From an uncultured Fodinibius sp. (lineage in GTDB: Bacteria > Bacteroidota > Rhodothermia > Balneolales > Balneolaceae), in the NCBI GenBank assembly GCA_913056235.1, contig CAJXMW010000004.1:398364-448008 (forward strand): a stretch of 49,645 nucleotides of DNA, in the 5' to 3' direction. Below are positions 43,236 to 46,621 of the stretch, piece after piece (position 1 is the first letter of the stretch; each line of letters starts with the position of its first letter). Under the pieces are notes generated by a model. That model made no database searches. It saw only the letters and a program-made list of their open reading frames with translations, and was not told where the DNA came from. Made by a program: the position numbers and the translations under genes.

Positions 43236-43363
43236 GTATAACGACTTTGCGCATAAGGGGCAGGCGCAATGCTGTTTATTTGGCAACTAACGAAAGAAGA
43301 GCTTTAAAACAAAGGGCGGCAAAAACCAAGCGAGGTGTGTCCGTGTTAAAGCGCGAATTAGGC
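43236..43363 (-). repeat. attC site B (128 bp)
   Basis: On the plus strand it starts GTATAAC, then ACTTTGCGCATAAGGGG, and ends GTTAAAGCGCGAATTAGGC. The right arm has diverged (TTAAAGCGCG instead of CTTAATGCGCGG). The inner part has the shared word GCAACTAACGAAAGAAGAGC. It lies between the GNAT and the first small membrane-protein cassette. The cassette it closes has a mismatched core (ATTAGGC against GTTAGAC). Confidence 0.82.
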
Positions 43364-43370
43364 AGTTTTT

Positions 43371-43832
43371 TTAGTAGGTTATAGTTTCTTTTATAAGATC
43401 CAATTTCCCCTTCTCAATAAAGCTATAAATTTGCTTCTCATCCCCATTTTCTACAAAAGTAAATTCAACCAAGTTATTTAGTATGCTGTCTCGAGATATA
43501 TTCGTGACTTGACTTAATTTGATCTCAGTTGGATGATTCACGTCATTAACAAATATAGGTGGGTGAAGGAGCAACTTAGATCCGTTTGATTCTACGATTT
43601 CCAAAATTTGTAGCGATTTAATAATTCTGAAGCAATAGGGCATTATAAATGCACAAGTTATTCCAACGATATTTATTACTAGTGAATCGGATGTGCCTCC
43701 AGTAATAAGAATATTGCCTAATATCCTGATTAAATTTATAGCAAAAACTGTCCCCAAAATTAATATTAGTGTTGAGATAACAATGAAACTATGAATGAAA
43801 AATGTATTTGAAATTTCTTCAGAGTTATTCAT
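43371..43832 (-). CDS. Small membrane protein, cassette gene (paralogue of 46024-46473)
   Basis: This 153-residue protein has two membrane helices at about 10-35 and 48-70 (FIVISTLILILGTVFAINL and VINIVGITCAFIMPYCF), followed by a soluble domain of about 80 residues with SLQILEIVESNGSKLLLHPP and NDVNHPTEIKLSQVTNI. I do not recognise a family. It is clearly homologous, at roughly two-thirds identity, to the gene at 46024-46473, also in this array. The cassette runs 43242-43860. Confidence 0.75.
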   Translation of the reverse strand: MNNSEEISNTFFIHSFIVISTLILILGTVFAINLIRILGNILITGGTSDSLVINIVGITCAFIMPYCFRIIKSLQILEIVESNGSKLLLHPPIFVNDVNHPTEIKLSQVTNISRDSILNNLVEFTFVENGDEKQIYSFIEKGKLDLIKETITY

Positions 43833-44384: not shown

Positions 44385-44496
44385 CTTGTTTATATTTTTT
44401 TCTTAAGTAATTAACAATCTAAAAATCGGTTTCTATTGTTCAAAATTGTTCTGTATTAGATTTATAGGCTAGAATTTAGATGAAAAGTGGTAGTTG

Positions 44497-44621
44497 GTAT
44501 AACGACATGGCGCATAAGGGGCGTGCTGACCAACGTTGATTTAAAAACAAAATGTACGACAGAAATTGAATAACTAAAAATCGGCAGGGAAGGGCGAAGC
44601 ACGTCCCACTTAATGCGCGGG
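44497..44621 (-). repeat. attC site D, left part (split by an IS)
   Basis: It starts GTATAAC, has the left arm GGCGCATAAGGGGCGTGC and right arm GCACGTCCCACTTAATGCGC, and breaks off after GCGCGGG where TTA is expected. The missing core TTAGGC is found 1388 bp further right, at 46010-46015. Restoring the site gives about 131 bp. Confidence 0.92.
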
Positions 44622-44690
44622 ATCTTTCCAAAAAGGAGGTCCTCACTTAGATTAGCGAGTATCAACCACAACTAATCCAAGGAGGACCTC

Positions 44691-45857
44691 ATGACCTATG
44701 TAGGAATAGATCTTCATTCAAATAATATGGTGAATGTAGCGATTAACAGCAACGGAGAAGTGATCCGAGAAGCCAAGCTACCGACGTCCCGTCGGTCGTT
44801 GGAAGACTTCTTTAGCACCTTCGGTGGCCCGGTAAAGGCCGTGGTCGAATGTACCAGCAACTGGTACTGGTTGTCGGACTGGTGCCGGGCCAATGGTGTC
44901 GAGCTGACGCTGGCCCACGCGAAAATGGTTAAGGCCATCAGCTATGCGAAAGTTAAGACCGATACTGTGGATGCGAAGACGCTGGCCGAACTACTGCGGG
45001 CCGACCTTATTCCGGAGGCCTATCAGGTCAAACATGATCGACGAGAACTGCGGGAGCTGACCCGCGGGCGCCTGCGGCTGATCCAGTGGCGCGGGAAACT
45101 GCAATCGACATTGTGGAACCAGGCCATCAAGTACAACGTGAAGATCAACGGAAGTCAGTGGAGAGAATTGAAAAAGCTACAACAGTGGCTACAGCCACAG
45201 TTGCCTTCGGCAGCGAGATTTCAGGCTCAGCTACTGATTGAACAAATGAGTCAGCTGCAGCAGCATATCCATCGGGTAGAAGAAGAAATTGAGAAGCAGC
45301 TGCCCTACGAAGCCTTGGCCAAGCGACTCATGGCGTTGCCGGGTTTAGGGAAGGTTGGTGCCTGGACGATCCTGGCAGAGATTGGCGACATCAGGCGATT
45401 CCCGAGCGCGAAGCAATTCGTCAGCTACTGTCGGCTAGTACCAGGGGCCAAAGACAGTGGTGGAAACAGAAAACATCAATCAGGGAATAAAGACGGAAAT
45501 AAGTATTTGCGAGCGGCTTTCGGACAAGCGGCCGTCTCGGCTTAAACCCATTACAAAGTAGTAAAGAAGTTTTACCGTAAGATTAAGCGCCGAAGCGGTC
45601 GGCCTGTAGCACGAGCTGTAGTCGCCAAGGAATTGGCCAAAGGCGTATGGTATATGTTAACGAGAAAAGGATTTAAGGGGCGCCCCGTAACGGGCGGCCT
45701 CGCAAACCTGTCCCGATCCTTCGGGACCGATAAGCCCGTTCGCCTAAGGGGGACACCGAGCCCGTGCGCGGGATTGGGACATCGGTTGGTGGGCCGGTTA
45801 AAGATCTGGGATGGTTCCGAGTATTCGGGACAGCTTCTGCCCATTGGCGGAAGATAA
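44691..45857 (+). pseudogene. IS110/IS1111 transposase with an in-frame TAA
   Basis: A strong Shine-Dalgarno (AAGGAGG) precedes the ATG. The N-terminal DEDD (RuvC-like) domain has Asp7, Glu53, Asp91 and Asp94, and the C-terminal transposase_20 domain has SGGNRKHQSGNKDGNKYLR, with the candidate nucleophile among its serines. The open part is 284 residues, ending at a TAA at 45543-45545. Reading through it continues in frame with THYKVVKKFYRKIKRRSG and KELAKGVWYMLTRKG, which look like the normal C-terminus. It is therefore probably an inactivated copy; the frame then runs into the RNA region up to 45857, and the true stop is unclear. Confidence 0.85.
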
Positions 45858-45890
45858 GCCCGAAAAGGGGTTTGGATGCCGGCAGGTAAT
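45700..45890 (+). ncRNA. Candidate bridge/seek RNA of the IS
   Basis: A highly structured segment downstream of the transposase, the position known for IS1111 elements. One helix (ACCGAT 45726-45731 with ATCGGT 45781-45786, plus CCC/GGG) encloses an internal loop with GCCTAA (45742-45747) on its 5' side and TGCGCGGG (45765-45772) on its 3' side. A second helix (GCCGG 45793-45797 with CCGGC 45879-45883) encloses AAAGATC (45800-45806) and AAAGGGG (45864-45870), with tip hairpins at 45814-45831 and 45833-45852. The first pair matches the attC target halves, the second the IS ends. Confidence 0.8.
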
Positions 45891-46009
45891 CCGAGCGTGA
45901 TCAGCGACACCGGTTGCCAGCTAACGGTTTGAACTAAAGGATTTATAGAAATGATGAAATAAGTAACTGGGTGAGGACTATCCGCTTGATATTTTCCTTT
46001 TTAAAGGGG

Positions 46010-46015
46010 TTAGGC
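46010..46015 (-). repeat. attC site D, right remnant
   Basis: TTAGGC, the rest of the R'' core, followed directly by GCAGTTTTTATTAGG as in the paralogous cassette's GGCAGTTTTTTTAGTAGG. This proves the exact right edge of the insertion. Confidence 0.9.
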
Positions 46016-46023
46016 AGTTTTTA

Positions 46024-46473
46024 TTAGGCTATAGTTTCTTTGATAACATCTAACTTTCCCTTCTTTAGAAAGCTAAAAATTTTCTTTTTCTCACCATCCT
46101 CTACAAAAGTGATCTTTACCAAATTATTGAAAATCTTATCTCTAGAAATATTTGTGATATGTCTCAGCTCAATCTCACTTGGATGATTGATATCGTTTAC
46201 AAATATGGGTGGATGAAGAAGTGCCTTCGACCCGACTATTTCTAAAATCTGTAGTGATTTAATGATTCGGAAACAATAGGGCATTAAAGCTAGACAAATT
46301 ATGCCAACAACAATTATTACAGGTGAATGGGAGGTGCTGCCTGAACTTACAATGTTGCCAACGATCTTGATTAAACTGATGGCAAAAACAGATCCAAAAA
46401 TTAATATCAGTGTTGATATGGCAATGAAACTATGAATAAGAAACGGATTTGAAACTTCTTCAGAGTTATTCAT
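46024..46473 (-). CDS. Small membrane protein, cassette gene (paralogue of 43371-43832)
   Basis: This 149-residue protein has the same layout as its paralogue: two TM helices near 10-35 and 46-70, then a soluble region with KSLQILEIVGSKALLHPP and HITNISRDKIFNNL. The two differ mostly in conservative positions and by a three-residue gap in the loop. Its original attC (site D) is now separated from it by the IS, so the cassette spans 44503-46500 and would be about 610 bp without the IS. Confidence 0.75.
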   Translation of the reverse strand: MNNSEEVSNPFLIHSFIAISTLILIFGSVFAISLIKIVGNIVSSGSTSHSPVIIVVGIICLALMPYCFRIIKSLQILEIVGSKALLHPPIFVNDINHPSEIELRHITNISRDKIFNNLVKITFVEDGEKKKIFSFLKKGKLDVIKETIA

Positions 46474-46494: not shown

Positions 46495-46621
46495 GCCTAA
46501 CGATCTTGCGCTTAACCGGCGTGCAGATTGATGTTGATTGGGCAACTAACGAAAGATGAGCTTCAAAACCAAGGCGGCCAGAGAATGGCCAGGCACGTCC
46601 CACTTAATGCGCGGGTTAGAG
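46495..46621 (-). repeat. attC site E (127 bp)
   Basis: It runs from GCCTAAC to GTTAGAG, left arm TTGCGCTTAACCGGCGTGC, right arm GCACGTCCCACTTAATGCGC. The minus-strand core is GTTAGGC, which equals the complement of the split site D's R''. The inner GCAACTAACGAAAGATGAGC word is shared with other sites. Confidence 0.92.

What the first reader, a model, noticed from the sequence alone, without database searches (positions are those of the whole stretch)
45700..45890. Readable bridge/seek RNA: two loops whose guides match the attC target and the IS ends
In the 3' part of the IS, the internal loop closed by ACCGAT/ATCGGT has a 5' guide GCCTAA, the reverse complement of the right target half TTAGGC (46010-46015), and a 3' guide TGCGCGGG, identical to the left target half (44614-44621). 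The second loop, closed by GCCGG/CCGGC, has AAAGATC, the reverse complement of the first bases of the IS left end with one flanking base (44621-44627), and AAAGGGG, identical to the IS right end (46003-46009). All four guides have the same order and polarity in both loops. IS110/IS1111 elements are known (2024 reports) to use such an RNA; here the prediction is made from one copy and states why the element lands in attC cores: its target guides spell the conserved R'' arm. The core shared by target and donor is GGG. I cannot say whether this particular element is described.
Basis: partly seen in the sequence, partly recalled or inferred. Interest (0 to 1): 0.95.

Follow-up and report, generated by a model that had tools for sequence, protein, structure and literature searches.

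The report
IS1111 guide RNA aiming at integrons
A decayed jumping gene sits in a recombination site of a bacterial gene-capture array and still carries the RNA sequence whose four short segments spell both its landing site and its own ends; this is a good new example of a mechanism described in 2024, with an unusual overlap between that RNA and the end of the transposase gene.

Summary
A 1388-bp IS1111-type element (44622-46009) interrupts an integron attC. All four in order occur in 0 of 20000 shuffles. The consensus fold has strong covariation over 15 relatives (28 of 34 pairs), and its model finds 11 of 12 elements not used to build it. Across 18 elements guides follow DNA: donor 3' guide and right end agree at 122 of 126 bases, left target 99 of 144; right target is weakest. 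It is a new member of a known kind: seekRNAs of attC-targeting IS1111 elements were published in 2024 with the same guide order. Corrections: core GG, not GGG; the GCCGG/CCGGC stem has no covariation support; this copy is a fossil (premature stop, net frameshift), and its RNA alone folds otherwise. Possibly undescribed: in 22 of 25 elements the transposase tail frame stops at the last three bases of the 5' target guide.

The parts
44622..46009 (+). IS1111-type insertion sequence, 1388 bp; the exact cut is ambiguous within the GG core at 44620-44621 / 46008-46009
   Evidence: Alignment with six sister copies; both junctions lie in attC
44630..44637 (+). left subterminal inverted repeat AAAAAGGA
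   Evidence: Read directly; partner TCCTTTTT at 45995-46002
45995..46002 (+). right subterminal inverted repeat TCCTTTTT
   Evidence: Read directly
44691..45545 (+). transposase gene, cut by a premature stop inside the Transposase_20 domain
   Evidence: profile match ends at 75 of 87; NCBIfam NF033542 'IS110 family RNA-guided transposase' 197.6 bits, cut-off 140
45717..45887 (+). bridge/seekRNA region, both domains
   Evidence: Covariance model R1, 166.6 bits (this copy is one of the 15 in the model); covariation
45726..45731 (+). target-domain stem, 5' arm ACCGAT (pairs with 45781-45786); the outer part of the stem is replaced in this copy
45781..45786 (+). target-domain stem, 3' arm ATCGGT
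   Evidence: helix 1: 8 of 9 pairs with compensatory changes across 15 sequences
45742..45747 (+). [quoted passage not shown]
   Evidence: its TAA closes the remnant of the transposase tail frame
45765..45772 (+). 3' target guide TGCGCGGG, same letters as the left target half, so pairs with the bottom strand
45800..45806 (+). 5' donor guide AAAGATC, pairs with the left IS end plus one core base
45807..45810 (+). possible donor-domain inner stem UGGG, pairs with CCCG 45859-45862
   Evidence: helix 5 (100% of cells paired, but nearly invariant, and in none of 15 single-sequence folds): weakly supported
45814..45831 (+). donor-domain hairpin 1
   Evidence: helix 6: 7 of 7 pairs with compensatory changes
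45834..45853 (+). donor-domain hairpin 2
   Evidence: helix 7: 8 of 8 pairs with compensatory changes
45864..45870 (+). 3' donor guide AAAGGGG, same letters as the right IS end
   Evidence: 122 of 126 bases over 18 elements
44496..44621 (-). attC, main part (R' to L''), left of the IS; cassettes are on the minus strand
   Evidence: aligns with the empty attC sites of the array
46010..46015 (-). attC R'' box, GCCTAA on the minus strand, right of the IS

Best explanation
The segment is the bridge/seekRNA region of an IS1111-family element of the attC-targeting type in a Fodinibius-related (Balneolaceae) chromosome. In an intact element the DEDD transposase would bind this RNA. [quoted passage not shown] The second domain reads the joined ends of the circular form: AAAGATC pairs with the left end, AAAGGGG matches the right end. 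Exchange at a shared GG core inserts the element in one orientation in R''. Shown here: the matches, the consensus fold and its covariation, and the target position. Inferred from the 2024 experiments on other family members: RNA production, binding and strand exchange. This copy is a fossil: its transposase frame is broken in two ways and its RNA, folded alone, no longer takes the consensus shape.
For: Guides exact and in order, 0 of 20000 shuffles. Consensus fold: 34 pairs, 28 with compensatory changes, 94.9% of cells paired versus 74.4% in shuffles and at most 51.2% when slid. Held-out test: model R1 finds the RNA in 11 of the 12 further elements fetched, 83.8 to 108.1 bits; the twelfth, L075, is stored only to just behind the transposase match. 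Guide-to-DNA agreement over 18 elements against 100000 permutations: right end 122/126, p about 1e-5; left target 99/144, p 4e-5; left end 92/126, p 1e-4; right target 87/144, p 0.005; with distinct guides only p 3e-5, 4e-4, 1.3e-3 and 0.047. Natural reprogramming: G046 lies at CAACCTG|TCAGAG, by eye not an attC, and its guides contain AACCTG and CTGA. Transposase family; solved relatives ISCro4 and IS621. Array: empty attC sites at 46605, 47656 and 48661 (exact) and 43968 (one mismatch); integron integrase TIGR02249, 467 bits, at the start of contig C6, while the window ends at the end of contig C4. Published precedent: ISKpn4, ISPst6 and ISPa25 with the same guide order (PMC11187229).
Against: The RNA has not been seen. 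Rfam has no match at its gathering scores in the window. The window copy folded alone takes another shape: of the consensus helices only hairpin 2 is formed. Single-sequence folds of the 15 relatives form the target stem (8 or 9 of 9 pairs) in 11, hairpin 1 (6 or 7 of 7) in 14, hairpin 2 in 10, and the inner donor stem UGGG/CCCG in 0. GCCGG/CCGGC has no covariation support. The right-target guide follows its DNA only weakly, and G091 matches 0 of 8. Of 10 copies of the clade read, four have an interrupted, replaced or missing guide and five have one or two A-to-G changes in the donor 5' guide (these changes would leave G-T wobble pairs). Related elements share guides and targets by descent, so the permutation p values are optimistic. 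The subterminal repeat is short (8 bp). No complete helper copy was found in this genome.
Confidence: 0.9

Rival explanations
1. Only the first domain acts as guide (a short seekRNA, as reported for ISEc11); the second domain is a processing or binding module and the IS ends are recognised by the protein through the subterminal repeats.
For: PMC11187229: the short 82-nt seekRNA of ISEc11 was enough for transposition in their assay. The outer donor stem has no covariation support and the inner one is nearly invariant and absent from single-sequence folds.
Against: The second domain's 3' segment follows the terminal heptamer of the right end in 18 elements at 122 of 126 bases, including AAAGCTG, AATGGTG, TAAGCGG and AAAGGTG. 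Little but pairing, or copying from the end, explains this.
Confidence: 0.12
2. The matches arose because the element copied bits of its end and target into the RNA region by recombination, or by chance, without guide function.
For: Short matches of 6-8 bases; a direct repeat TGCGCGGGAT at 44614 and 45765.
Against: 0 of 20000 shuffles; the segments lie at fixed places in a covarying consensus fold and change with the DNA across elements; two of the four matches are reverse complements, which copying as direct repeats does not give.
Confidence: 0.03
3. The copy is still active, with its premature stop bypassed, or gives guide RNA in trans.
For: Both ends and all four guide strings are intact.
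Against: Premature stop and a net frameshift; its RNA alone does not take the consensus fold; no second complete copy of this clade in the genome.
Confidence: 0.04

Closest known systems
seekRNA of ISKpn4, ISPst6 and ISPa25, IS1111 elements that target attC (PMC11187229; parts 1-4 of 9 read, passages)
   Same: Downstream RNA; target is one end of attC; segment complementary to the top strand lies 5' of the segment complementary to the bottom strand; one insertion orientation.
   Different: Donor guides are not described in the parts of that paper that I read. Whether their transposase stop codon lies in the guide could not be compared: a figure legend says that the termination codon is marked, but figures are not held.
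Bridge RNA of IS621 and predicted bridge RNAs of IS1111 elements (PMC11208160; passages read)
   Same: Two loops, target and donor, with guides reading opposite strands; a core dinucleotide; in IS1111 the RNA is in the right end and donor bases can lie in a multi-loop, as here.
   Different: In the IS110 group the RNA is mostly in the left end; the order of the target segments in IS110 elements is reversed (PMC11187229).
Natural redirection ISEc11 / ISXne4 (PMC11187229)
   Same: Related elements with different targets and matching changes in the RNA.
   Different: Here 18 elements, and the donor side is followed too.
omega-RNA of TnpB elements (recalled, no call)
   Same: A guide RNA that overlaps the 3' end of the protein gene.
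   Different: Unrelated protein and mechanism; here the stop codon itself lies in the guide.

Membership tests
IS1111 family (within IS110) | DEDD transposase with Pfam PF01548 and PF02371 | tested here: met
   both over the curated cut-off; NF033542 over cut-off; Asp7, Glu53, Asp91 and Asp94 invariant in 9 aligned proteins (that these are the catalytic four is recalled)
IS1111 family (within IS110) | long non-coding region downstream of the transposase gene | tested here: met
   RNA region 45717-45887, downstream of the gene; in relatives its 5' arm is inside the gene's tail
IS1111 family (within IS110) | subterminal inverted repeats, 7-17 bp (PMC11208160) or usually 11-13 bp (PMC11187229) | tested here: inconclusive
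   8 bp perfect, AAAAAGGA/TCCTTTTT: inside the wider range, below the narrower one
IS1111 family (within IS110) | no target duplication; one orientation | tested here: met
   Only a shared dinucleotide at the junctions (15 of 18); the seven copies compared have the same orientation relative to attC
IS1111-attC group | insertion at one end of attC in an integron | tested here: met
   integron integrase in the same genome
IS1111-attC group | transposase close to those of ISKpn4, ISPst6 and ISPa25 | not tested
   Their sequences were not identified in the plasmid searches (listings of at most 60 records each); the best-listed plasmid protein is 34% identical
bridge/seekRNA | two target segments reading opposite strands, top-strand complement first | tested here: met
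bridge/seekRNA | donor segments reading the IS ends | tested here: met
bridge/seekRNA | the guides lie in loops of a stable fold | tested here: inconclusive
   Target loop: covarying stem, formed by 11 of 15 single-sequence folds but not by the window copy. Donor loop: two covarying hairpins, closing stems not established
bridge/seekRNA | RNA is made, binds the transposase and directs insertion | not testable with these tools
   needs RNA sequencing and a transposition assay

The most novel reading that the evidence does not exclude
In this clade of mostly attC-targeting IS1111 elements (the window's order, another order of its phylum, and one Thiotrichaceae genome) the transposase gene runs into its own guide RNA and its stop codon is the last three bases of the 5' target guide. 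The first three bases of the right target half are therefore tied to the reverse complement of a stop codon: TTA in attC, and TCA in the one reprogrammed element G046, whose stop is TGA. Target choice and translation termination are linked, which may hold these elements to the GTTA attC core, and a ribosome that reads to the end may block or open the guide fold and so choose between making protein and making guide.
Probability: 0.35. Interest if true: 0.6.

Novelty: new member of a known kind. Interest (0 to 1): 0.42.

Why it matters
The two 2024 reports leave open whether IS1111 elements read their own ends with RNA (bridge RNA) or only their target (a short seekRNA was enough for ISEc11). 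Eighteen naturally varied elements, whose right-end heptamer and RNA segment change together, give comparative evidence for RNA reading of the donor and a ready panel for testing it. They also show how such elements are aimed at integron cassettes in the Fodinibius group, and the stop codon inside the guide is a simple, testable oddity. For the copy in this window the practical meaning is small: it is a fossil that has broken one attC.

Tried and rejected
Chance matching was tested with shuffles and false junctions and rejected. The GGG core was rejected in favour of a dinucleotide. The GCCGG/CCGGC stem was tested and has no covariation support. Folding the window copy alone gives another shape, in which a palindrome at 45711-45726 pairs with the hairpin-1 region; I rely on the alignment-based fold, which the copy itself may no longer take.

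Searches that gave nothing or little: Rfam (0 matches at gathering scores); plasmids at 1e-40 (none) and at 1e-12 (160 records, listed ones at most 34.2% identical); viral contigs with the protein alignment (none of 38 candidate stretches encodes a relative); ISKpn4 or its relatives in plasmids (among the 60 rows listed in each only IS5075, IS4321, ISAtu7 and elements without such a name). Five plasmid elements were opened. L077 (Paraburkholderia) is a weak model match, 24.8 bits; by eye its transposase stops upstream of the guide region, as does that of L078. L078, L079 and L080 had no model match; L081 was not given to the model and by eye its flanks do not look like attC. Papers: Tetu and Holmes 2008 is not held; no held paper has both Fodinibius and integron; none since 2024 has both IS110 and 'bridge recombinase'; of the 10 papers listed I read passages of PMC11208160 only.

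Rows dropped before counts. The fold alignment A1 has 15 rows: left out were G011 (insertion in the donor guide), G028 (5' half missing), the partial copies L002 and L020, and the elements fetched later. The 18-element table uses the window copy for its whole clade and leaves out G506 (no left end found), G408 (no RNA in the stored stretch), G100 (same flanks and ends as G091) and partial copies. One search covers 25 elements and reads only the frame in which the last three guide bases are a codon; that this is the transposase frame rests on the conserved tail seen in it. By that, 22 stop exactly there, G506 stops two codons earlier as well as there, and G091 and G053 do not fit. In 11 of the 25 that frame is open for more than 300 codons up to the stop.

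Full report
What was checked. The region was read, its open reading frames listed and the window compared with Rfam (no match at gathering scores). The element runs from 44622 to 46009. Its transposase gene starts at 44691 and is cut by a stop at 45543-45545, inside the Transposase_20 domain (the profile match reaches 75 of 87 positions). The frame that reaches the guide is not the frame of the start codon: position 45745 lies one base off the frame of 44691, while six copies of the clade (G005, G010a, G001, G004, G011, G010c) show a shared tail WPQPI.P.A in one frame up to the guide. So the protein is broken twice. The window's genome has only partial further copies of this clade (one full match, the window's own, and two partial; one protein match, the window's own).

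The guides. Chance was tested in two ways: 20000 dinucleotide-preserving shuffles of the RNA region, and 20000 false junction pairs 1388 bases apart elsewhere in the window. The target pair in order occurred 3 and 2 times, the donor pair 13 and 0 times; all four in order occurred in 0 shuffles.

Sister copies. Six further copies in the genus (G005, G010a, G010b, G001, G004, G011) were aligned over their length. G001, G005, G004 and G011 are the same contigs as the named records of Fodinibius sediminis, an uncultured Aliifodinibius, F. halophilus and F. roseus (with the contig lengths). All seven lie in the same place and orientation of attC...TTAATGCGCNGG | IS | TTAG.... The base N is G, A or T, so the shared core is GG, not GGG. 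Over all loci held, the left junctions of this clade follow TTAATGCGC exactly in 10 of 13 distinct cases, with one mismatch in two and two mismatches in one. Right flanks begin TTAGG in 9 of 16 junctions and TTA in 14 of 16, counting L009, where the scan placed the junction one base late.

Damage in sister copies. Ten copies of the clade had an RNA that I read (window, G005, G010a, G001, G004, G011, G006, G010c, G010d, G028). In G001 the 3' target guide is interrupted by a small palindrome; in G004 the 3' target guide is altered and the 3' donor guide replaced; in G011 the 3' donor guide is interrupted by an insertion; G028 lacks the 5' half with the 5' target guide. In five (G010a, G010c, G010d, G006, G011) the donor 5' guide reads GGAGATC or AGAGATC instead of AAAGATC although the left end is unchanged where it is held; against T these A-to-G changes would leave wobble pairs. 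In the window copy the outer part of the target-domain stem is replaced by a palindrome.

The fold. Fifteen RNAs, from the same genus to another order of the phylum (G177) and a Thiotrichaceae genome, were aligned and folded together. Domain 1: a nine-pair stem, then CCCG/UGGG, then the two target guides on either side of a small apical hairpin. Domain 2: donor guides on either side of UGGG/CCCG, above which stand two hairpins. Of 34 pairs, 28 show compensatory changes; 94.9% of cells pair, against 74.4% in shuffles and at most 51.2% when the partner is slid. A covariance model made from these 15 found the RNA in 11 of the 12 further elements fetched, at 83.8 to 108.1 bits, while three plasmid elements of other IS110 groups (L078, L079, L080) gave no match and one (L077) a weak one. 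Single-sequence folds are less kind: of the 15, the target stem is formed (8 or 9 of 9 pairs) in 11, hairpin 1 (6 or 7 of 7) in 14, hairpin 2 in 10, and UGGG/CCCG of the donor domain in none. The window copy forms only hairpin 2; its minimum-energy fold is another one. So the target loop and the two donor-side hairpins are well founded as a family fold; how the donor loop is closed is not settled.

Do guides follow the DNA? For 18 elements with both ends and an RNA, the eight or seven bases next to each junction were compared in fixed register with the RNA segments, and the total was compared with 100000 permutations of RNA against DNA. Right end with donor 3' guide: 122 of 126, permuted mean 95.0, p about 1e-5. 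Left target with target 3' guide: 99 of 144, mean 80.3, p 4e-5. Left end with donor 5' guide: 92 of 126, mean 83.5, p 1e-4. Right target with target 5' guide: 87 of 144, mean 78.4, p 0.005. Using one element per distinct guide: p 3e-5 (9), 4e-4 (12), 1.3e-3 (13), 0.047 (10). The register and anchors were chosen by eye and the elements are related, so these values are optimistic. The clearest single case is G046: its target is by eye not an attC (CAACCTG|TCAGAG) and its guides contain AACCTG and CTGA. The clearest failure is G091, whose right target matches 0 of 8. The dinucleotide before the left and the right junction is the same in 15 of 18 elements, as expected for a shared core. In G505, G481 and G319 the donor 3' guide ends in GG while both junctions carry TG, as if the right junction kept the core of the target.

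Integron context. The array in the window has empty attC sites of the same kind at 46605, 47656 and 48661 (exact), 43968 (one mismatch) and a more divergent one at 43347. With the flanks of the IS joined in a script the interrupted site aligns with these. The cassettes are on the minus strand and the window ends at the end of contig C4; contig C6 begins with an integron integrase (TIGR02249, 467 bits, cut-off 265), so the integrase may lie just beyond the window's end. That link is an inference from contig ends.

Mechanism. Shown: sequence matches, consensus fold, covariation, target position and orientation. Inferred from the published work on ISEc11, ISKpn4 and ISPa11 (PMC11187229, parts 1-4 of 9 and passages) and IS621 (PMC11208160, passages): the RNA is made, bound by the DEDD transposase, pairs with both strands of target and of joined ends, and exchange at the core inserts the element. 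The guide order found here (top-strand complement first) is the one reported for IS1111 elements and opposite to IS110.

What is known and what may be new. attC-targeting IS1111 elements, their seekRNAs and natural redirection are published, so this is a new member of a known kind. Two points go further. First, the donor segments: the published IS1111 experiments describe target segments only in the parts I read, while the bridge-RNA paper predicted donor pairing; the agreement of the right-end heptamer with the RNA over 18 elements supports the latter. Second, in 22 of 25 elements the reading frame of the transposase tail ends exactly at the TAA or TGA that forms the end of the 5' target guide; G506 stops two codons earlier as well, and G091 and G053 do not fit. 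In 11 of 25 that frame is open for over 300 codons. One search looked at that frame only, and many of the 25 are related. The searches for this point in print were (two papers searched for stop or termination codon and overlap); they showed no such statement, but figures and supplements were not seen, and one legend mentions the termination codon.

Verdict. Real, and correctly interpreted in outline; ordinary in kind, a fossil copy, with a good comparative data set and one oddity worth a test.

Noticed in passing
45742-45747 and the matching places in 25 elements: The transposase tail frame ends at the stop codon formed by the last three bases of the 5' target guide in 22 of 25 elements; G046 has TGA and a TCA target.
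   Followed up: partly
45711-45726 in the window; L014, L015 and L016 in their guide regions: Small palindromes or inserts replace or interrupt parts of the RNA in the window copy and in G001, G004 and G011. In the whole window the pattern CCCGA-gap-TCGGG occurs only here.
   Followed up: partly
43371-43832 and 46024-46473 (minus strand): Two cassettes of the array carry similar proteins of about 150 residues (MNNSEE...), apparently a duplicated cassette gene; the IS has broken the attC behind the second.
   Followed up: no
L059 (G000 contig C6, 283-1248): Integron integrase at the start of another contig; the window ends at the end of contig C4, so the two contigs may be neighbours.
   Followed up: partly
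L045 (G046), L026 (G082), L029 (G070), L031 (G086): A sister group with left end ATATTTAC lies at sites ending in CTTG, CTG or CCTG that do not look like this attC; its target was not worked out.
   Followed up: no
45986-45991 (right end): Four of six sister copies have TTGACA near the right end, which with the left end could form the promoter of the circular form; the window copy has TTGATA.
   Followed up: no
G505, G481, G319 (L067, L070, L072): The donor 3' guide ends in GG where both junctions carry TG, as if the right junction took the core of the target.
   Followed up: no
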